Shown: one piece after another, positions 44,699 through 59,523 of the stretch
Position numbering within the stretch: position 1 is the first letter of the stretch
Layout: each line of letters starts with the position of its first letter
NCBI GenBank assembly: GCA_004298155.1
Contig: SCRD01000016.1
Coordinates: forward strand, 186,001 to 250,000
Reading direction: 5' to 3'
DNA from: Acidobacteriota bacterium
GTDB taxonomy: Bacteria; Acidobacteriota; Terriglobia; UBA7540
Length of the DNA: 64,000 bases
Made by a program: the position numbers and the translations under genes
Notes under the pieces: model-generated
Database searches by the model: none
What the model saw: only the letters and a program-made list of their open reading frames with translations
What the model was told of the DNA's origin: nothing

Positions 44699-44725
44699 GA
44701 TTCTTCGCTCCGCTCAGAATGACAG
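44699..44725 (-). repeat. Dispersed 27-bp repeat copy (CTGTCATTCTGAGCG type)
   Basis: Read on the minus strand it starts CTGTCATTCTGAGCG and ends GCGAAGAATC. The copy at 55302 matches at 24 of 27 positions. It lies in the mdh-icd gap. Elements of this type are scattered widely through many environmental bacterial genomes. Confidence 0.65.
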
Positions 44726-49211: not shown

Positions 49212-50795
49212 TTACTGCGCGGGGCTGGTGGATGGCGGCAACGTCCAGGCGTAGAGGACGCTGCCCACGGCGGTCAGAAGATATTGCCGGCCGTTCAGTT
49301 CGTAGGTCATGGGGCAGCCGGTGACACTGTCACCAGCATACACATGCCACAGAGTTTTGCCGGTTGCGGGATCCAGAGCAATAATGTCTCCGGCAACGTC
49401 GCCGGTGAGCAGAAGATGGCCCGCAGTTGTCAGGATTCCAGACCCTGCCTCTCCGTATCCGGTGATGGCTGGGCTGTCCCGGTGCCATGCGATCTTTCCC
49501 GTCTTGTAGTCAATTGCCAGCAGTTGGGCCTGCGACCAGAGCGGGCTGACCACGGCGCCCTGGTGGTCGGATTCGGTGGCCTTTGAGCCGTCCCTGGTCA
49601 GATAGCTGACGAAGGTAAGCCGGTAAGCGTTCACATAGAAAAGCCCTGTGCCCGGGTCGAAGCTAGGCGCCCACCAGTTTGTCCCCATGGTATCCACCAG
49701 AGTGCCTGAAGTCTGCGGTTGCTTTTTCAGATTGGGGATGGGTTCGCCGCGCTTGTCGAGCCCCTCGCTCCAGTTTTGGGGACCGTAAAGCGTGCTCAGC
49801 AGGTCCTCACCCGTCGCGCGGTCCAGCAGGAAAAAGTATCCGTTGCGGCTTGCCTGGGCCAGTAGCTTGCGTGGCTTGCCCTGGAAATTCGCGTCAAAGA
49901 TGACAGGTGTCTCGTTCGCGTCGCGGTCCTGGGTGTCGTGCGGTGAAGCCTGGAAATACCAGACCATCTTGCCCGTGTCCGGATTGATGGCCACAATCGA
50001 GCAGGTATAAAGGTTCGCGCCGGGGCGCACCTGGCCGGCCATCACAGGGTGCGGATTGCCGGTTCCCCAGTAAATCATGTTCAGCTCAGGATCATAGCTG
50101 CCCGTCATCCAGGTCGTGCCGCCGCCGTGGGCCATGATGTCGGCGTTCGGCCACGTGTTTGCGCCTGGCTCTCCTGGATTGGGCGTGGAGTACCACCGCC
50201 AGATCAGGCGCCCGTCCTCCGGGCTCCTGGCGTCCAGGAAGGCCTTGATGTCCGTCTGGTCGCCGGAAATTCCCACGATCAGCCGGTCCTTCACCACCAG
50301 CGGAGCCGTGCTGATGTAATACCCGAATTTTGTGTCGGCAACGACGACGTCCCAGATTTTCTTCCCGGTGCGCGCGTCAAGGCAGATGAGGTGCGCGTCA
50401 GGCGTGCCAAAAAACAGCCGGTCCTTGTACATGGCCACGCCGCGATTGGCGATGAAGTTTCCTTCCGACTCGCGCTGGAATTGCCAGATCTGGCGGCCCG
50501 TGCGGGCGTCCACCGCCCACACATGGTTCGGGACGGTGAAGTATAGGACTCCGTTCACTTCAAGCGGCGTTGATTTCATCTCCTGCTGGTGCGTCTGGAA
50601 CGCCCATGCCAGCGTCAGCGAGCTGACGTTGCTTTGATTAATCTGCGAGAGAGGGCTGTACCGCCGGCCGGTGTAATCGCCGTTATAGGTGGGCCAGGTG
50701 TCCGTGGTGGGCTTCAATAGCGCGCTCGGGTCGAGGCCCTGGGCGAAAATCGACGGGGCCCAGAGCAGGAACAGGATTGCGATCAGCTTCCTCAC
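49212..50795 (-). CDS. PQQ-dependent dehydrogenase (methanol/ethanol family)
   Basis: A 527-aa periplasmic quinoprotein with a signal peptide ('MRKLIAILFLLWAPSIFAQG') and an eight-bladed propeller. Family segments are 'DTWPTYNGDYTGRRYSPLSQ', 'GTTWMTGSYDPELNMIYWGT', 'GNPHPVMAGQVRPGANLYT' and 'SPHDTQDRDANETPV', whose Asp pair corresponds to catalytic residues of methanol dehydrogenase. It should oxidise an alcohol, or possibly a sugar, and pass electrons to a cytochrome. The adjacent upstream gene encodes a dihaem cytochrome c and overlaps by 4 bp, an obvious electron acceptor. The substrate is not determined. Confidence 0.9.
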   Translation of the reverse strand: MRKLIAILFLLWAPSIFAQGLDPSALLKPTTDTWPTYNGDYTGRRYSPLSQINQSNVSSLTLAWAFQTHQQEMKSTPLEVNGVLYFTVPNHVWAVDARTGRQIWQFQRESEGNFIANRGVAMYKDRLFFGTPDAHLICLDARTGKKIWDVVVADTKFGYYISTAPLVVKDRLIVGISGDQTDIKAFLDARSPEDGRLIWRWYSTPNPGEPGANTWPNADIMAHGGGTTWMTGSYDPELNMIYWGTGNPHPVMAGQVRPGANLYTCSIVAINPDTGKMVWYFQASPHDTQDRDANETPVIFDANFQGKPRKLLAQASRNGYFFLLDRATGEDLLSTLYGPQNWSEGLDKRGEPIPNLKKQPQTSGTLVDTMGTNWWAPSFDPGTGLFYVNAYRLTFVSYLTRDGSKATESDHQGAVVSPLWSQAQLLAIDYKTGKIAWHRDSPAITGYGEAGSGILTTAGHLLLTGDVAGDIIALDPATGKTLWHVYAGDSVTGCPMTYELNGRQYLLTAVGSVLYAWTLPPSTSPAQ

Positions 50796-51619
50796 TTCAG
50801 GGTCTCCAGGTAAGCAAAGAGGTTGTGCATGTCGGCATCCGTCATCACAGAAAGCAACTGGCGGTGTGCCGCCAGCCGGTCATCAAGTTTCACCTTGACG
50901 GAGTTGAGCGGCCAGGAACGGTACCAGCCCGAGCCGTCAACAATGGCAACGTCGTAGTGCGAGAGCAGGCGGACCGCGCCGGTGTATTCTTTCCCCGAAG
51001 CGTCCGTCACCGTGGCCGTGGGGGCCTGGGTGTCGCCTGGATAAAGCATTCGCGCCTGCAAATCCGCCGGCGGATACTTGCCGGCAATACCCTTCAAATC
51101 GCCCGCAGGGGAGTGGCAACTGGAACACTTGCCCGCGCCGTCGAAAAACTTTTTCCCAGCCTCCGCGTTGCCCACCAGCAGCTTGGCAAGCGAATAGCCT
51201 GCGCCAGCCTGCGCGGCCGAACGGCGGTCAGATTCATCCAGCCGGAAGCGGAGAAACGCCACAATGTCCATGACCTGGTCGCTCGAAAGCTGGAAGGCGG
51301 GCATTCCTTTGCCCGGAAATCCGTTGCGAACCACCGGGCCAATCTGGTCACCCTTTTCGTCGTGCCGCACCACCGAGCTACGCATGAGATTGGGGCCTGT
51401 GGAACCGCCGTTTGCGTCAGGGCCATGGCAAAAGCCGCAGGTCTTCTGGAACTGGACGCGCCCGCGTTCCACCTGCGCGGCTGGATATTCGTTCCAAAGC
51501 CCGCGGCGCCTTCCCGAGGCTTGCTTTTCCTGCCCCGCCATCAGCATGGGCAGGCAGCAGCACGCCACCACGAGCAGCGCGAGACAGGTCTGTTGTGGGT
51601 TTCGAGTGATTTTTATCAT
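50792..51619 (-). CDS. Dihaem cytochrome c, partner of the PQQ dehydrogenase
   Basis: A 275-aa exported cytochrome. The N terminus has a hydrophobic signal ('CLALLVVACCCLPMLMAG'). Haem sites are CGFCH at residues 61-65 and CSSCH at 165-169. The first domain has a likely Met ligand in 'GKGMPAFQ'. The second domain ('GNAEAGKKFFDGAGKCSSCH' onward, with 'DASGKEYTGAVRLL') resembles the TIGR02603-type haem-binding domain often found in planctomycetes and acidobacteria. Its stop overlaps the quinoprotein start (4 bp), so both are probably made together. Confidence 0.9.
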   Translation of the reverse strand: MIKITRNPQQTCLALLVVACCCLPMLMAGQEKQASGRRRGLWNEYPAAQVERGRVQFQKTCGFCHGPDANGGSTGPNLMRSSVVRHDEKGDQIGPVVRNGFPGKGMPAFQLSSDQVMDIVAFLRFRLDESDRRSAAQAGAGYSLAKLLVGNAEAGKKFFDGAGKCSSCHSPAGDLKGIAGKYPPADLQARMLYPGDTQAPTATVTDASGKEYTGAVRLLSHYDVAIVDGSGWYRSWPLNSVKVKLDDRLAAHRQLLSVMTDADMHNLFAYLETLK

Positions 51620-53782: not shown

Positions 53783-55243
53783 TCAGACAGCGCTCAGTCC
53801 CAGGCCGCCTAATTCAGCGGTGTGGAGTTTGCCATCGCGGACCTCGAATAGTCCCGGAAACTTCTTCAGCCACGGCTTATTCGCCGCGGGCACGTACTCC
53901 CGCCCATTCGACTCTAGAAGATCAATCGGCGCAACGTGCGCGGCGATGCCGGCGGACTGAATCAGGGATGCTCCGGGGCAGGTGAGGTCCTGCGCTGACA
54001 TATACATTTTGAACTTTTGCGCCGCAGCGTTCAGCAGCACGGTCTGGCTTTGGCCCTTACAGGCCTTGAGGGCCACCCCGGTATATCCAAGCTTGCGGCC
54101 CCGCAAGAGCGCATCGTAGCCGGTGAGCGATTCGTCCATGACCACGGGTTTCAGCCTCGAAACCTTGAAGAGCATTTGTGACGGGTCATCAATCAGGTCA
54201 CGGGACTCTGGCTGCTCAAGGTAAAGGATGCGGCTGTAGCCGCCGGGCGACTTTTCCCTGATGCGGCGGACCGATTCCATGAGGTAATCGGCGTTCGGGC
54301 ACCCCTCGTTGAAGTCCAGCGTGTAATACCAGTGGCGGACGCCGCGGCGGGCTTCCACTTCTGTCGCGATGCGGTCAATGTGCAGCACCCGTTCAACATC
54401 GGGTTCAAGATTGTTGCCGTCGAGCTTGATCTTGAAGTGCGTGAGGCCGTCGGCAACAATCCATTGGGACAGCGTTTGCGGCAGGCCATCGTGCAGCCAT
54501 TTCTTGACATCCGAAGCCACGATGGGATCAGACGCTCCCACCGAATGATTGCACCACACCCAGGGCTTGGGTTTTTGCAGCAGATACTGGCTGGGATATT
54601 CGTCTTTGAATTCTGGCGCAAGGTAATGGGCGAGGTCGTGACTCATGAACTCCGGGCCGTAAGTCTGGTAACAGTTAAGCCGGTGGACCTTTCCAAAGGC
54701 ATCGTGGATGGCGGCGTCAAAAGGGCTGGCGGTGACAAGCGTGCAGAGCTTGGGGATCGGCTGCTCGAGACGCATTTCTTTTGTGACCTCAGCCGCCGCG
54801 CGCAAATATTCCGGCTCCAGCGCAAAGTTGATGTCGATGGGATGGCCGGATTCCTGATAATCGGCGGTGATCCTGGAGATGCGCTGTGCCAGGCGCTTCA
54901 TAGCATTGAGCGTGGCGTCATAGGAGAGCGTCTTGGACGGGAACGCCCATTCATTGCCCATGGTCATGGAGCCGAATCCGTGGGCCACACGCCCCAAACC
55001 CGTCTCCACCGTGCAATGAACGTCCAGGAGCGTTACTTTGTCAACGCTGCGGCCGCCGAATTCATAAGGAGTTCGATAGGGAAAATCCTCATAGCTGACG
55101 CGGACCTCTTTGACGCGAATGTCGCTGGATTTACGATTTGGCGCGGCCATTGTGAGCCCTGCTGCCAGCGGTGAGAGGGAAACTGACCCCACCGATGCGG
55201 CTTTCAGAAACTTTCTCCGCGTCATTTTATAGCGCAGTTCCAA
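53783..55243 (-). CDS. Tat-exported enolase-superfamily (mandelate racemase/muconate lactonising) protein
   Basis: A 486-aa protein with a twin-arginine signal (TRRKFLKAASVG). The barrel carries enolase-superfamily features: KIK at about residues 272-274, metal ligands at Asp310 (YTLDFNEG), Glu343 (LYLEQPES) and Asp370/Glu371 (VVMDESLTG), and a later Lys in 'VALKACKGQ'. Members abstract a proton alpha to a carboxylate, for example as sugar-acid dehydratases or racemases. AAAGGAGG lies five bases before a TTG at 55243, which I take as the start; the frame's first GTG at 55249 overlaps that site. It is the third gene of an operon-like set with an isomerase-like protein and a quinoprotein. Confidence 0.88.
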   Translation of the reverse strand: MELRYKMTRRKFLKAASVGSVSLSPLAAGLTMAAPNRKSSDIRVKEVRVSYEDFPYRTPYEFGGRSVDKVTLLDVHCTVETGLGRVAHGFGSMTMGNEWAFPSKTLSYDATLNAMKRLAQRISRITADYQESGHPIDINFALEPEYLRAAAEVTKEMRLEQPIPKLCTLVTASPFDAAIHDAFGKVHRLNCYQTYGPEFMSHDLAHYLAPEFKDEYPSQYLLQKPKPWVWCNHSVGASDPIVASDVKKWLHDGLPQTLSQWIVADGLTHFKIKLDGNNLEPDVERVLHIDRIATEVEARRGVRHWYYTLDFNEGCPNADYLMESVRRIREKSPGGYSRILYLEQPESRDLIDDPSQMLFKVSRLKPVVMDESLTGYDALLRGRKLGYTGVALKACKGQSQTVLLNAAAQKFKMYMSAQDLTCPGASLIQSAGIAAHVAPIDLLESNGREYVPAANKPWLKKFPGLFEVRDGKLHTAELGGLGLSAV

Positions 55244-55301
55244 ACTCACCTCCTTTAAGATTGCTTAAAAATTTCCTCGCCCGCCATTCGAGCCCTTTTG
55301 C

Positions 55302-55328
55302 CTGTCATCCTGAGCGAAGCGAAGGATC
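55302..55328 (+). repeat. Dispersed 27-bp repeat copy (CTGTCATCCTGAGCG type)
   Basis: It starts CTGTCATCCTGAGCG and ends GCGAAGGATC. The inverted copy at 44699 matches at 24 of 27 positions. It sits in the 148-bp gap between the enolase-superfamily and isomerase-like genes, inside an otherwise operon-like arrangement. Confidence 0.7.
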
Positions 55329-55391
55329 ACAGTAGTTCGCAACTTGAGGGCGAACAGGCCCAGCATGACATGTTGCCTGTTTCGAATGCTG

Positions 55392-56369
55392 CTATGCCTT
55401 TCCGTAGGCCTCGCGAACCGCCGATTTAATGTAATCGAGATTTTCCTTGATGGCAGCCATGACTCTGGGAACTTTATCACGCGACAGCGCAACCCCCGAC
55501 TCATGGGAGAAGCCAGGAATTCCATACTCATGCTGGTAGGAGATGGGGCCATGGAAATCCGACCTGGCAAGGAGCTGGAAAAACTCCTTCCAGCGGGACA
55601 TCCCCTGGCCCATGGGGCAGATGACAGCACGCCACTCGTGAGGCCCGGCGCTTTTCCAGATAAAATCCTTGGCGGCCACCATCTTCAGGCGTGGCATGAC
55701 GAGATTGGTTGAAACGCTCCATCCGCTTTCTCCGCCCTCGATTGTGGCCTGGCAAAGGTCATAGTAGTAGCCGCACCAGCGCGGATCGAGCGGTTCGATC
55801 ACTCTTGCCATGTCCCAGATGGCTTCTCCGATATAACGAGGGTGGTTGTGATAGCCCACCTGGATTCCGTGGTCCTTTGCCAGGTCCACCAGGGTGCGGA
55901 AACGCCGCCCGGCCTCGGCAACTTCTTCCTGCACGTTGACCATCTTGTAATGGTAATACCCCGGTTTCAGGTAGGGGATGTGGAGCTTGCTGGCCGTGCT
56001 GATGATGGGCCTCGCCGTGGGGTCATCGGCGGAGAGAAGTTCGGTGGTAATCATCGGGACCTCAAGCCCCGTGTTCCGTATGGCCTCGACCGCCTTCGGA
56101 AGGTCCGATTCCGCGCGTTCGGGAAGGACGTGCCCCTCCGACCGGACGGTCAGGTCAATTCCGCCAAAGCCTGCACGCTTTGTGCTCCCCGCCAGTTCCT
56201 TCCAATTCAGCTGCGGGACGGGCTTGGAGAATAAACAGAGAGTTCCGCGGAAGGCCCCGCGCGGAGCGGGTGTGGCAGCTGCCCGAGCGGCGCTGAGCGC
56301 TACAGCCCCGCCAAGCGCGCCAACGGATGATGCCTTTAGGAATTCACGCCTGGAAACATGTTCGTTCAC
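55392..56369 (-). CDS. Tat-exported sugar phosphate isomerase/epimerase-like TIM barrel protein
   Basis: A 325-aa protein beginning with GTG at 56369, which has GAAGGAGG eight bases upstream. It starts with a twin-arginine signal (SRREFLKASSVG) and an Ala-rich hydrophobic segment. The barrel has 'LVDLAKDHGIQVGYHNHPRY', 'WCGYYYDLCQATIEGGESGW' and 'AAKDFIW', typical of the xylose-isomerase-like AP2EC family, with His, Glu and Asp ligands. Most relatives act on sugars or inositols in the cytoplasm; here it is predicted to be exported. It starts 14 bp after the quinoprotein stop on the same strand, so it is probably in the same mRNA. Confidence 0.88.
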   Translation of the reverse strand: MNEHVSRREFLKASSVGALGGAVALSAARAAATPAPRGAFRGTLCLFSKPVPQLNWKELAGSTKRAGFGGIDLTVRSEGHVLPERAESDLPKAVEAIRNTGLEVPMITTELLSADDPTARPIISTASKLHIPYLKPGYYHYKMVNVQEEVAEAGRRFRTLVDLAKDHGIQVGYHNHPRYIGEAIWDMARVIEPLDPRWCGYYYDLCQATIEGGESGWSVSTNLVMPRLKMVAAKDFIWKSAGPHEWRAVICPMGQGMSRWKEFFQLLARSDFHGPISYQHEYGIPGFSHESGVALSRDKVPRVMAAIKENLDYIKSAVREAYGKA

Positions 56370-56383
56370 GGTGTTCACCTCCT

Positions 56384-58744
56384 TCAGGGCAGACCAAAGC
56401 ATAAAATGTTGGGACCAACTGCAAGCGCCACATACTGCTTTCCGTTTACCAGGTAAGTCATCGGCGAGGCCTTGTTTTCACCATTCGTTGAGAAGCGCCA
56501 AAGCGTCTTTCCGTTGCGCGCATCGACGGCCACTACATTGCCGCTCGGATCGCCATAAAAGAGAAGTCCACCTGCCGTTGCCAGCACCCCCGCTTCTCTC
56601 TTGCCTTCCGGCGGTCCAAGTTCCGGGACCTTCCACACAATTTTTCCGGTATTGATATCCAGCGCTTCCAGATATTTGATTGCGGGCTCTTCCTTCGGCT
56701 GATTCTGCTTCCAACTGCTGGCGGTAAGTTTGAACTCGCACTTTTCAAGGGCCACCAGATAATAGAGGCCGGTCTGAGGGCTGAAGGCCGTGGCGTTCCA
56801 GTTGGCGCCGTACGAGCCTGGGCAGAGAAGTCCTGCCTGCTGAAGAAGCTGGGGCCGCCCGTTGAGGCCGATTCCGCTGGCCCATGTTACCCGCACAAAC
56901 GGGCTGGCCAGCAGCACCTGGCCGTTCGTCCGGTCGAGCACATAGAAGAACCCGTTCTTGTCGGCGTGCAGCAGGAGTTTCCGTTCCTGGCCCTGATATT
57001 GCGTATCCACCAGCACAAGTGGCGCGTTCGCGTCCCAGTCGTGGACATCATGAGGAGTAACCTGGTAATACCACTTGATCTTGCCGTTGTTCGGATCGAG
57101 GGCAAGGATGGAGTTCGTGTAGAGATTGTCACCGGGGCGGGCCCGGTCATCTGAATCGGGATAAGGATTGCCAGTGGCCCAATAGAGCGTGTCCGTCCCG
57201 GGATCGTAAGAGCCGGTCAGCCACGTTGCGCCACCGCCTGTCTTTGGCGGGTTCCCCCCCCAGCTTTCAGCCTCTGGCTCGCCCTTTTCGGGAACGGTCC
57301 ACCGCCGCCAGACCCGCTCGCCATTGGACGCCTTATAAGCGGCCACAAAACCCCGCATGCCCCAATCGCCTCCAGAAACTCCGGCAATCACCATGTCTTT
57401 GACCACGAGAGGCGCGACGGTTGCGCCATAGTGCATCGGTTCGTCCGGCATCACCACTTCCCACACCAGTTTCCCTGTAGTGCGGTTCAAGGCTATCAGG
57501 CGGGCATCATCCGTCACCCTGAAAACTTTATCGCCGAGGATGGCCATGCCGCGATTCGTGCCAAGCGCTGCATCGCCAACCACCACGGAAGTTCGCGGGC
57601 GCGAATATGACCAGATCTCCTGGCCCGTGTTGGCATCCAGCGCATAGGCCCGTTGCGGACCCGTGGCGTACATGATGCCGTCAGCAACCAACGGCGTCAC
57701 CTCCAGGCCGAAGTACTCCATGTTCAGGTTGAAATAGGCGGTGTCAGGGAGAAGTTGCTTCCACAGTGGCACCGTAAAGACCCACTTCAGGCGCAGTTGG
57801 CCGACATTTGACTTGTTGATCTGCGAAAGCTCGCTGTATCGATTCCCGTTCAGATTGCCGTTGTAAGTAAGCCAGTCGCCCGGCCGTGGATTGAGAATTC
57901 TGGAGAAAGGAACGCCGCCAGCTTCGGAGGGACCACTGGCCACGGCCATGCCTGGCTTTACACCGGCGAGGCCGCTGAGGAAGGCGACGAGGTCCTGGAG
58001 TTGCTCAGCGCTTGCTTTGACGGGTGGCATCTGCGATTCCCGGTCTTCGCTGATGGCCGTAATCGCGTCCATCGGCAGCATGTGGAACTGCCCCTTCAGG
58101 TCCTGTACGATGACTTCAAAATTGCTCCGGCTTCGCGCGAAGCCACGAACGACCTTTCCCTCCTGCAAGTGTACAGTCACCATTTGATAGCCGGGAGCAA
58201 TCTGCCGGCTGGGCTGCAGCAGGCTCGATCGAAGCTCCTCAGCGGTCATCTCGCGGGCGACATTTGAGAGGTCGGGCCCCAAGGCCGATCCCCTGCCGTA
58301 AACCATGTGGCAGGTGGCGCACTGGCCCGCGCCAAAGAAGTACCGTTCCCCGGCCACACGGTCGCCGGAAATGCTGCCTTCAGCAGCCGGCAAGTTCATC
58401 GAGTAAATCAGCGCCGCAAGCGCGTGCAACTCGCTGGCCGGGAGGGCATTGAACGACGGCATGCCTCCGGCTGGAACTCCGTCGTGAATTACGCGGCTCA
58501 ACCAGGAAATTGAGCGCCCTCGCAGCCTGCCGCTCCCAGCCAAAGGAGGCCCGTACTCGCCGCCCCGCGCGTCAACGCCGTGACAACCAGCGCATTGCCT
58601 GGCAAAAGTTTCGCTGCCGATTGTCTGCAAGTTCCGGCTGGCGGGGGTTTGGCCCCATAGAATCGCCAGGCTGAAGACGAGGGCAACAGGCGCCAGGCCA
58701 ATAGTCCCTCGGGATACTGTTTTCCGGATTACGGCGCCCATCAT
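56384..58744 (-). CDS. Fused cytochrome c / PQQ quinoprotein dehydrogenase
   Basis: A 786-aa exported protein. After a signal peptide ('LAPVALVFSLAILWGQ') come two haem c sites, CAGCH (51-55) and CATCH (142-146); the second belongs to a TIGR02603-type haem-binding domain running to ~250. The PQQ propeller then runs from 'PGDWLTYNGNLNGNRYSELS' to the end, with 'GGGATWLTGSYDPGTDTLYW' and 'TPHDVHDWDANAPLVL'. The cytochrome is at the N terminus, opposite to classical type II quinohaemoprotein alcohol dehydrogenases. GAGG nine bases before the ATG at 58744 supports this start. It leads an operon-like set with the isomerase-like and enolase-superfamily genes. Confidence 0.9.
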   Translation of the reverse strand: MMGAVIRKTVSRGTIGLAPVALVFSLAILWGQTPASRNLQTIGSETFARQCAGCHGVDARGGEYGPPLAGSGRLRGRSISWLSRVIHDGVPAGGMPSFNALPASELHALAALIYSMNLPAAEGSISGDRVAGERYFFGAGQCATCHMVYGRGSALGPDLSNVAREMTAEELRSSLLQPSRQIAPGYQMVTVHLQEGKVVRGFARSRSNFEVIVQDLKGQFHMLPMDAITAISEDRESQMPPVKASAEQLQDLVAFLSGLAGVKPGMAVASGPSEAGGVPFSRILNPRPGDWLTYNGNLNGNRYSELSQINKSNVGQLRLKWVFTVPLWKQLLPDTAYFNLNMEYFGLEVTPLVADGIMYATGPQRAYALDANTGQEIWSYSRPRTSVVVGDAALGTNRGMAILGDKVFRVTDDARLIALNRTTGKLVWEVVMPDEPMHYGATVAPLVVKDMVIAGVSGGDWGMRGFVAAYKASNGERVWRRWTVPEKGEPEAESWGGNPPKTGGGATWLTGSYDPGTDTLYWATGNPYPDSDDRARPGDNLYTNSILALDPNNGKIKWYYQVTPHDVHDWDANAPLVLVDTQYQGQERKLLLHADKNGFFYVLDRTNGQVLLASPFVRVTWASGIGLNGRPQLLQQAGLLCPGSYGANWNATAFSPQTGLYYLVALEKCEFKLTASSWKQNQPKEEPAIKYLEALDINTGKIVWKVPELGPPEGKREAGVLATAGGLLFYGDPSGNVVAVDARNGKTLWRFSTNGENKASPMTYLVNGKQYVALAVGPNILCFGLP

Positions 58745-59523
58745 TGAATGAAACCTCATCGACAATGCCCTGACCCCGGAACCTGACGAATTATTGTGGC
58801 CAGGCTGATCGGTTGCTGAAAATTCTGATAGGAGGGTTCTCTCCCCTCGACCTTCTCGATGCGCCGCTTGCGCCTGGCCGGCCAGGGCCCCGCAGGCGGC
58901 TGCCCTCCGCTTTCTCTTTCCACTCGCTCCGCGAGGTCGGCTCCCATTGTACTCCTGTGTTCAAGTTTCCAAACCTGTTCTGCTGCCACTCCCCGGCACA
59001 CCGGGGCCGTCCGCAAAAAGAAAATTGGGATTATGCGAGGCCGAAACGGCCAAAGGCGCCGCTCGGGGTTGGCAGGCCCTGGCACCCTGGGGCCGGAAGA
59101 TTTCCGAATTTCGGACTATGGAGCCGACTTGCTTCAACTTACGGAGATAGCATGGGACATAAGACATCAATCGCCGGCGGCAGGAACCGAGCGGATCGAG
59201 ACTGAAAACAGGCTGTCGAAGCAACCTTTCGCCTCCTGGTTTGCGTCAGAAAGTATTTCCGGCATTCCACTTTAGCGAAGAGAGTTTACATCCGACGCCC
59301 CGGCGCTCCCGGATAATTTTTGCGTTTTTAGCCTTGGTATAATGTATGGTTGAATAACAACAGGACCCAGCAAATACGCTATGATAATGTTGCGTCGCGA
59401 ACAAACAGGTTGTATTGTATTTTGATTATCAGTGCATCAGGAGACGGACTTTGTCCAATGCGCGGGGCAAGTGCGGTTTTTTTGTCGCTGAGGCCTTGTG
59501 CTCTAGGTTAAAGGATAAATCAA
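58745..59523. other. 779-bp divergent intergenic region
   Basis: This lies between the divergent quinoprotein and outer-membrane protein genes. The left 500 bp are GC-rich with no supported gene. The right part (59300-59523) is AT-rich and contains a perfect TATAAT at 59338-59343 without a good -35 box, so the promoter for the rightward genes probably lies here. AAAGGA near 59509 is the ribosome binding site of the next gene. Confidence 0.55.

What the first reader, a model, noticed from the sequence alone, without database searches (positions are those of the whole stretch)
53783..58744. Operon of three exported enzymes: cytochrome-quinoprotein, isomerase/epimerase-like barrel and enolase-superfamily protein
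The quinoprotein has a Sec-type signal and the other two have twin-arginine signals; spacing is 14 bp and 148 bp on one strand. Isomerase/epimerase and enolase-superfamily enzymes are normally cytoplasmic sugar or sugar-acid enzymes. A full periplasmic route (oxidise a sugar, then epimerise and dehydrate the acid) is a reasonable inference and would be unusual. I regard this as the best candidate for an undescribed pathway in the window.
Basis: partly seen in the sequence, partly recalled or inferred. Interest (0 to 1): 0.55.

Follow-up and report, generated by a model that had tools for sequence, protein, structure and literature searches.

The report
Exported barrel–enolase pair with a quinoprotein
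Three genes in a soil acidobacterium make enzymes that appear to work outside the cell's inner membrane; two of them belong to a little-known partnership also found inside root-nodule bacteria, which suggests an undescribed way of processing sugars or sugar acids, although the exact reaction is still unknown.

Summary
On the minus strand lie a di-haem cytochrome c/PQQ-propeller protein (QUI, 56384-58765), a twin-arginine xylose-isomerase-like barrel (BAR, GTG start 56369) and a twin-arginine enolase-superfamily protein (ENO, 53783-55249), with gaps of 14 and 148 bp.

The conserved unit is BAR+ENO: neighbours in 21 of 78 Terriglobia ENO loci in both orders, in 5 of 14 further genomes of the phylum sample, and one gene apart in 35 of 35 Rhizobium plasmids present in both hit lists, without signals. 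QUI joins in 11 of 78 loci in two orders, but 17 of 27 close QUI homologues have no ENO neighbour.

ENO is an uncharacterised family with invariant lysines and a D-E-D metal site, resembling the muconate-cycloisomerase (MLE) subgroup rather than known sugar-acid dehydratases. BAR has an H-x-H motif but lacks one known metal histidine. QUI has the lanthanide-type D-x-D; this genome shows no PqqC or PqqE over cut-off.

Best reading: an extracytoplasmic oxidise-rearrange-deprotonate module for a sugar-derived carboxylate, the exported counterpart of a cytoplasmic couple. Substrate and reactions are inferred; both AlphaFold jobs failed.

The parts
56384..58765 (-). QUI: exported di-haem cytochrome c + TIGR02603 haem domain + PQQ-type beta-propeller (793 aa from TTG; ATG starts at 58759/58744 also possible)
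58307..58594 (-). QUI haem-binding CAGCH (residues 58-62) to CATCH (149-153)
57365..57367 (-). QUI D467, replaces the metal-ligand Glu of PQQ alcohol dehydrogenases
   Evidence: alignments; D in 11, E in 2, Q in 1 of 14 aligned
57032..57040 (-). QUI D576-W-D578: catalytic Asp and lanthanide-type Asp
   Evidence: alignment with XoxF 6dam and with 6zcw; D576 and D578 in 14 of 14 aligned
56370..56386 (-). QUI TGA stop overlapping the Shine-Dalgarno AAGGAGGTGA of BAR
   Evidence: sequence
55392..56369 (-). BAR: Tat-signal xylose-isomerase-like TIM barrel (GTG start 56369; ORF open from 56402)
56334..56354 (-). BAR twin-arginine motif SRREFLK
55842..55850 (-). BAR H185-x-H187 (strand beta5)
   Evidence: H185 21 of 22, H187 22 of 22; compare AtOGE His132/His134 (PMC10628242, passages)
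55758..55760 (-). BAR D215 (beta6 metal Asp)
   Evidence: 22 of 22
55527..55529 (-). BAR E292 (beta8 metal Glu)
   Evidence: 21 of 22
53783..55249 (-). ENO: Tat-signal enolase-superfamily protein, MLE-like (likely start TTG 55243)
55202..55225 (-). ENO twin-arginine motif MTRRKFLK
54425..54433 (-). ENO K273-I-K275 (KxK, beta2)
   Evidence: 76 of 76 assessable; invariant in 30 of 30 across phyla
54305..54316 (-). ENO D312-F-N314-E315 (beta3 metal Asp)
   Evidence: D in 75 of 76 assessable; D312, N314, E315 invariant in 30 of 30
54209..54217 (-). ENO E345-Q-P (beta4 metal Glu)
   Evidence: 75 of 75 assessable, 30 of 30
54131..54136 (-). ENO D372-E373 (beta5 metal Asp)
   Evidence: 75 of 75 assessable, 30 of 30
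54056..54067 (-). ENO K395-A-C-K398 (beta6 Lys)
   Evidence: 76 of 76 assessable, 30 of 30

Best explanation
The operon encodes an extracytoplasmic catabolic module. QUI oxidises a hydroxyl or aldehyde of a sugar, polyol or cyclitol with bound PQQ plus a metal (lanthanide-type D-x-D site) and passes electrons through its own two c-type haems to the respiratory chain (inferred). BAR, a divalent-metal TIM barrel of the IolE / tagatose-epimerase / 3-keto-glycoside-eliminase superfamily, rearranges the oxidised intermediate through an enediolate, by epimerisation or beta-elimination, with the H185-x-H187 pair and D215/E292 (inferred). ENO, an uncharacterised MLE-like member of the enolase superfamily, binds a carboxylate on Mg2+ (D312/E345/D372) and abstracts its alpha-proton with the K275/K395 pair, giving 1,1-proton transfer or a syn elimination (family and residues shown, reaction inferred). 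BAR and ENO are the core couple; they exist as cytoplasmic partners in Rhizobium sugar-uptake operons, so the acidobacterial version is that chemistry with Tat signals, and QUI was joined to it in some lineages as an oxidising step that needs no soluble NAD.
For: BAR next to ENO in 21 of 78 Terriglobia ENO loci, both orders; all 16 BAR copies of 390 bits or more that can be judged adjoin ENO (17 found; the 17th ends 169 bases from its contig end). In the phylum sample 14 further genomes of 297 hold ENO (16 loci fetched) and 5 of those genomes have BAR adjacent. Separate tblastn searches of 72,556 plasmid records with BAR and with ENO both reach Rhizobium (80 of 81 and 91 of 127 records), and in 35 of 35 records present in both 60-row listings the two hits are 979-1066 bp apart; the Rhizobium barrel scores 117 bits with the BAR profile. 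QUI joins in two gene orders and in at least two starred places of the ENO tree. ENO catalytic residues are invariant in 30 of 30 sequences of Acidobacteriota, Alphaproteobacteria, Actinomycetota and haloarchaea; best PDB profile matches are L-Ala-D/L-Glu epimerase 2e-6 and muconate cycloisomerases. Export motifs in 70 of 76 ENO and 20 of 21 BAR, TatC present. Neighbours: Gfo/Idh/MocA proteins best matching the glycoside-3-dehydrogenase model NF058561 below its cut-off, alpha-L-fucosidase and acetyl-xylan-esterase-like proteins, GH39, KduI/IolB and 2-hydroxyacid dehydrogenase in Rhizobium, sugar ABC transporters and DHDPS-family genes near ENO in other plasmids.
Against: No substrate or reaction was shown. 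Both AlphaFold models are useless (pLDDT 36.7 and 29.9), so active sites rest on alignments. QUI is away from ENO in 17 of 27 homologues of 1000 bits or more. Most ENO (57 of 78 loci) have no BAR beside them. This genome has no PqqC or PqqE over cut-off, QUI lacks the vicinal Cys-Cys and has Asp for the metal Glu, and falls under both quinoprotein cut-offs, so it may not carry PQQ. BAR lacks the beta7 metal His (A243), and the Rhizobium barrel has lost H185 and E292. In S. meliloti, Glaciihabitans, Chelatococcus and Nitratireductor the barrel near ENO is a different AP_endonuc_2 branch (E 0.02-0.7 with the BAR profile). ENO of genus g25 in f8 seems to lack a signal.
Confidence: 0.5

Rival explanations
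1. One reading: QUI oxidises an aldose to its aldonate, BAR epimerises it and ENO dehydrates the sugar acid to a 2-keto-3-deoxy acid in the periplasm.
For: DHDPS-family genes (the family of 2-keto-3-deoxy-acid aldolases) and Gfo/Idh dehydrogenases lie by ENO relatives; a gene annotated L-arabinonate dehydratase follows ENO in one Rhizobium operon; OSBS, a dehydration, belongs to the same MLE subgroup (PMC7246345, passages); 3,6-anhydro-galactonate cycloisomerase, a sugar-acid enzyme, is a weak hit (0.17).
Against: Acid-sugar dehydratases are listed for the MR, GlucD, ManD, GalD and enolase subgroups (PMC7246345) and ENO has Lys on beta6, not the His/Asp dyad (dyad recalled); no DHDPS-type aldolase was seen in the acidobacterial gene lists; the S. 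meliloti DHDPS-type neighbour is DUF993.
Confidence: 0.2
2. [quoted passage not shown]
For: The chain oxidation, beta-elimination, hydration, reduction by 'sugar phosphate isomerases' and Gfo enzymes is shown for levoglucosan (PMC7676230, passages) and proposed around the phlorizin-cleaving AtOGE (PMC10628242, passages); BAR has the H-x-H, Asp, Glu of AtOGE; Gfo neighbours best match glycoside 3-dehydrogenase NF058561, below cut-off; GH39 in Rhizobium.
Against: BAR lacks the beta7 His that AtOGE needs (H189A under 0.1% activity); the sugar phosphate isomerases 8tcd/8tcs match only at 0.3; nothing in that pathway needs an enolase-superfamily enzyme.
Confidence: 0.2
3. Amino-acid or peptide chemistry: ENO is an exported dipeptide epimerase or N-acyl-amino-acid racemase, perhaps on murein peptides; BAR and QUI are incidental.
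For: Closest PDB profile matches are L-Ala-D/L-Glu epimerase and NAAAR; a DmpA-type S58 peptidase lies within four genes in 6 of 78 loci; oligopeptide/dipeptide-type transporter annotations near two plasmid copies.
Against: BAR-ENO coupling across phyla and the sugar-type neighbours; similarity to those epimerases is weak (23-30 bits over part of the barrel).
Confidence: 0.15
4. Chance neighbours: QUI is an unrelated 'empty' quinoprotein next to a BAR-ENO pair.
For: Only 10 of 27 linkage; no PqqC or PqqE over cut-off here.
Against: Two gene orders, 14 bp spacing with stop codon inside the Shine-Dalgarno; 5 of 11 trio genomes carry PqqE over cut-off.
Confidence: 0.2

Closest known systems
MLE subgroup of the enolase superfamily (L-Ala-D/L-Glu epimerase 1jpm, muconate cycloisomerase 1muc, NAAAR 2zc8)
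   Same: KxK, D-E-D metal ligands, beta6 Lys, best profile matches
   Different: longer, exported, extra invariant K398 and (Q/E)DL and N448, no NCBIfam match, partner barrel
AP_endonuc_2 barrels: IolE (3cny), MJ1311 (3wqo), AtOGE and LgdB of 3-keto-glycoside pathways
   Same: fold family, H-x-H, Asp and Glu positions
   Different: Tat signal, no beta7 His, paired with ENO
PQQ alcohol dehydrogenases (1kv9, 6zcw, XoxF 6dam) and TIGR04528 acido-empty-quinoprotein group A
   Same: propeller, catalytic Asp, metal Asn, D-x-D
   Different: N-terminal di-haem module, no Cys-Cys, Glu to Asp, below both curated cut-offs
Rhizobium plasmid operon: ABC transporter, IolB/KduI, GH39, BAR-like, 2-hydroxyacid dehydrogenase, ENO-like (L137, L139)
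   Same: both BAR and ENO relatives in one operon
   Different: no signal sequences, no quinoprotein, BAR-like has lost metal ligands
Periplasmic quinate/shikimate catabolism (PQQ quinate dehydrogenase plus dehydratases; recalled)
   Same: quinoprotein plus TIM-barrel dehydratase outside the inner membrane
   Different: AsbF-type barrel only distant (2e-4), no enolase-superfamily step

Membership tests
Enolase superfamily, MLE subgroup (ENO) | KxK on beta2 and Lys on beta6 | tested here: met
   K273/K275/K395 invariant in 30 of 30; aligned with 1jpm and 3iji
Enolase superfamily, MLE subgroup (ENO) | D-E-D metal ligands | tested here: met
   D312, E345, D372 invariant in 30 of 30
Enolase superfamily, MLE subgroup (ENO) | capping MR_MLE_N domain | tested here: inconclusive
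   only MR_MLE_C found, 27.8 bits against 29.4; 40 of 40 members hit MR_MLE_C and no second Pfam family
Enolase superfamily, MLE subgroup (ENO) | epimerase, racemase or cycloisomerase activity | not testable with these tools
   needs enzyme assay
Acid-sugar dehydratases (MR/GlucD/ManD/GalD) | His/Asp dyad on beta7/beta6 (recalled) | tested here: not met
   Lys395 on beta6, Q420-D421 on beta7 by alignment
AP_endonuc_2 (PF01261) (BAR) | profile match over cut-off | tested here: met
   86.3 against 31.1 bits
3-keto-glycoside beta-eliminase, AtOGE type (BAR) | His beta5, Asp beta6, His beta7, Glu beta8 and catalytic His | tested here: not met
   H185, D215, E292, H187 present, beta7 position is A243
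PQQ methanol/ethanol dehydrogenase TIGR03075 (QUI) | curated cut-off 480 bits | tested here: not met
   458.4 bits
PQQ methanol/ethanol dehydrogenase TIGR03075 (QUI) | catalytic Asp, metal Asn, metal Glu, vicinal Cys-Cys | tested here: inconclusive
   D576 and N533 kept, Glu is D467, Cys-Cys absent
acido-empty-quinoprotein group A TIGR04528 (QUI) | curated cut-off 650 bits | tested here: not met
   480.7 bits
Tat substrates (BAR, ENO) | RR motif plus hydrophobic stretch, TatC in genome | tested here: met
   export itself not tested

The most novel reading that the evidence does not exclude
A complete extracytoplasmic oxidative pathway in Acidobacteriota: a lanthanide-type, self-wired cytochrome-quinoprotein oxidises a plant or microbial sugar derivative, and a Tat-exported barrel plus a Tat-exported member of a new enolase-superfamily family convert the product before uptake; the same barrel-enolase couple works in the cytoplasm of rhizobia on an imported, GH39-cleaved glycoside.
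Probability: 0.3. Interest if true: 0.7.

Novelty: new variant of a known kind. Interest (0 to 1): 0.5.

Why it matters
An enolase-superfamily family without a known reaction, single-copy in many Terriglobia genomes and carried on rhizobial plasmids, gets a genomic partner and a testable chemistry. If the exported version works as inferred, soil acidobacteria do multi-step sugar-acid chemistry outside the inner membrane with electrons going straight to cytochrome c. It also bears on whether the many quinoproteins of acidobacteria without PQQ synthesis are working enzymes.

Tried and rejected
AlphaFold models of ENO (pLDDT 36.7) and BAR (29.9) on 3-row alignments: too poor for fold search, so none was run. 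Single-sequence PDB searches for ENO and BAR found nothing; profiles were needed. The PqqC hit in the own genome (61 bits) was rejected as a CADD-like protein (my reading of its sequence, recalled family). Apparent long ENO fusions in f5/f8 (680-753 aa open frames) are read as non-coding 5' extension of the frame. Literature searches gave no paper on this operon, on exported enolase-superfamily enzymes or on the Rhizobium couple; that is the extent of the search, in an open-licence library, and only listings were seen except for the passages of PMC12124388, PMC10628242, PMC7676230 and PMC7246345. The B. thetaiotaomicron 3-keto pathway paper is recalled, not read; only NCBIfam names and papers holding words of its title were seen. 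First plain twin-arginine counts (74 of 78 ENO) were replaced by the stricter rule (70 of 76; rows L088, L090, L092 dropped). Even under that rule some f8 g25 rows (L078, L080) may pass on non-coding extension. The ENO tree is the quick one; the careful search did not finish, and rows under 400 aligned residues were left out. The two contigs fetched twice (L093/L094 = L001/L002) were dropped from counts; L092, a distant relative, is not in the 78-locus table. In one search the QUI alignment has 15 rows, of which 14 were assessable at most positions; it includes the second window quinoprotein.


Full report
What is there. On the minus strand the window holds QUI (56384-58765), BAR (55392-56369 from GTG, open from 56402) and ENO (53783-55249). 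QUI has two CxxCH haem sites, a TIGR02603 haem domain and a PQQ-type propeller; BAR is an AP_endonuc_2 barrel; ENO matches only MR_MLE_C. BAR and ENO carry SRREFLK and MTRRKFLK; QUI a more hydrophobic Sec-like segment. TatC is encoded.

Is the linkage real? In 299 genomes of the class, 76 hold an ENO homologue at E 1e-20 or better. I fetched the surroundings of these (two contigs were the same as L001/L002). In the gene-order table of 78 loci BAR adjoins ENO in 21, as BAR>ENO or ENO>BAR, and QUI joins in 11: QUI>BAR>ENO in the window, L001, L002 (two small gene calls between), L095 and L054; BAR>ENO>QUI in L099, L104, L106, L108 and L110; one further gene between in L097. The remaining loci, mostly f5 and f8, have ENO without BAR, often in housekeeping synteny such as LigA-DedA-ENO or RpoN-HPF-RapZ-ENO (gene names are my reading of the sequences). 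The reverse look: 17 BAR copies of 390 bits or more, 16 of them beside ENO and one ending 169 bases from its contig end; 27 QUI copies of 1000 bits or more, 10 beside ENO, 17 elsewhere, mostly single or near other quinoproteins (some of those contigs end close by). On a quick tree of 74 ENO sequences the QUI+BAR label needs 4 changes, at least 2 forced by starred branches. The own genome has about 30 AP_endonuc_2 and about 9 PQQ-propeller genes, so neighbours of these kinds are expected by chance only about once in a hundred.

Wider relatives. In 297 genomes of the phylum, 15 including the own one hold ENO; of 16 fetched loci in the other 14 genomes, 5 (L146, L147, L148, L150, L151, all in different genomes) have BAR adjacent and none QUI. 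In plasmid records ENO finds 127 (91 Rhizobium, 18 Sinorhizobium, some haloarchaea), the listed full-length ones at 24-30% identity, BAR finds 81 (80 Rhizobium). For the 35 accessions in both 60-row listings the two hits lie 979-1066 bp apart in all 35; in the two annotated ones that I opened the gene between is a 2-hydroxyacid dehydrogenase. The Rhizobium operon also holds an ABC transporter, a KduI/IolB protein and a GH39 glycosidase. The Rhizobium barrel is a true BAR relative (117 bits); the barrels near ENO in S. meliloti, Chelatococcus, Nitratireductor and Glaciihabitans are not, though these loci again combine an ENO relative with an AP_endonuc_2-type barrel, Gfo/Idh and DHDPS-family genes and transporters.

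Active sites. ENO keeps K273, K275, D312, N314, E315, E345, Q346, D372, E373, K395, K398, D421 and N448 in 30 of 30 sequences across Acidobacteriota, Alphaproteobacteria, Actinomycetota and haloarchaea. The 30-row profile reaches L-Ala-D/L-Glu epimerase (2e-6), chloromuconate and muconate cycloisomerases, N-acylamino-acid racemase and dipeptide epimerase. A paper on the superfamily puts acid-sugar dehydratases in the MR, GlucD, ManD, GalD and enolase subgroups, and epimerases, racemases and OSBS in MLE (PMC7246345, passages). So ENO is MLE-like by residues and profile, but an uncharacterised family. BAR keeps H185 (21 of 22), H187 (22), D215 (22), K245 (21), D246 (22), E292 (21); profile relatives are MJ1311, IolE, UlaE and AsbF. 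AtOGE, a 3-keto-glycoside beta-eliminase, uses His132, Asp163, His189, Glu233 and catalytic His134 (PMC10628242, passages); BAR lacks the beta7 His. QUI aligns with XoxF and 6zcw over D576-x-D578, keeps the metal Asn, has Asp for the metal Glu and no Cys-Cys.

Cofactor. The own genome (97.6% complete) has no PqqC or PqqE over cut-off; 36 of 200 class genomes do have PqqC over cut-off, and 5 of 11 trio genomes PqqE. PQQ scavenging is common in Gram-negative bacteria, and in Acidobacteria the importer PqqU was found only in Vicinamibacteria (PMC12124388, passages). Whether QUI is loaded with imported PQQ or empty is open.

Export. A strict rule (RR plus hydrophobic 12-mer within 45 residues of the domain) holds for 70 of 76 ENO and 20 of 21 BAR. 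Among the failures are f8 g25 genomes whose ENO seems to start without a signal, and rhizobial copies have none.

Mechanism. I read BAR+ENO as a conserved couple acting in sequence on a sugar-derived carboxylate, exported in Acidobacteriota, with QUI added as oxidant. Shown: linkage, signal motifs, residues. Inferred: order of steps, metals, substrate. The neighbours lean towards sugars (Gfo/Idh like glycoside 3-dehydrogenase, fucosidase, acetyl-xylan-esterase-like, GH39, KduI/IolB), but an S58 peptidase in 6 of 78 loci and the epimerase-like profile keep a peptide substrate possible.

Verdict. New variant of known kinds: known folds, an uncharacterised enolase-superfamily family, and an exported two-enzyme couple that I did not find in print in the searches listed under Tried and rejected.

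Noticed in passing
window 49212-51619 (-): A second exported cytochrome c plus quinoprotein pair; the propeller scores 733 bits with TIGR04528 acido-empty-quinoprotein group A (cut-off 650) in a genome without PqqC or PqqE over cut-off.
   Followed up: partly
L137 and L139; 35 of 35 records: Rhizobium plasmids carry BAR-like and ENO-like genes in one operon, with ABC transporter, IolB/KduI, GH39 and 2-hydroxyacid dehydrogenase genes in the two opened; function unknown.
   Followed up: partly
L078, L080, L082-L085: ENO of f8 genus g25, after RapZ where the contig shows it, seems to lack a Tat signal, so the same family may be cytoplasmic there.
   Followed up: partly
L042, L045, L050, L052, L064 and others: In many f5 genomes ENO is a lone gene in LigA-DedA-ENO synteny, suggesting a core role independent of BAR and QUI.
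   Followed up: no
L035, L099, L100, L106, L108, L110: A DmpA-type peptidase S58 lies close by on the opposite strand in six ENO-BAR loci.
   Followed up: no
window 55303-55319 (-), also 44708-44724 (+) with 2 mismatches: Short repeat CTTCGCTCAGGATGACA in the BAR-ENO gap, none expected by chance.
   Followed up: no
L124 6848-8095, L105 5130-6350: Other Tat-type enolase-superfamily proteins near QUI or ENO; the L124 one best matches the L-rhamnonate dehydratase model, below cut-off.
   Followed up: no
L142, L143, L141, L136: ENO relatives outside Acidobacteriota sit with a different AP_endonuc_2-type branch plus Gfo/Idh and DHDPS-family genes (DUF993 in S. meliloti), perhaps a parallel version of the couple.
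   Followed up: partly
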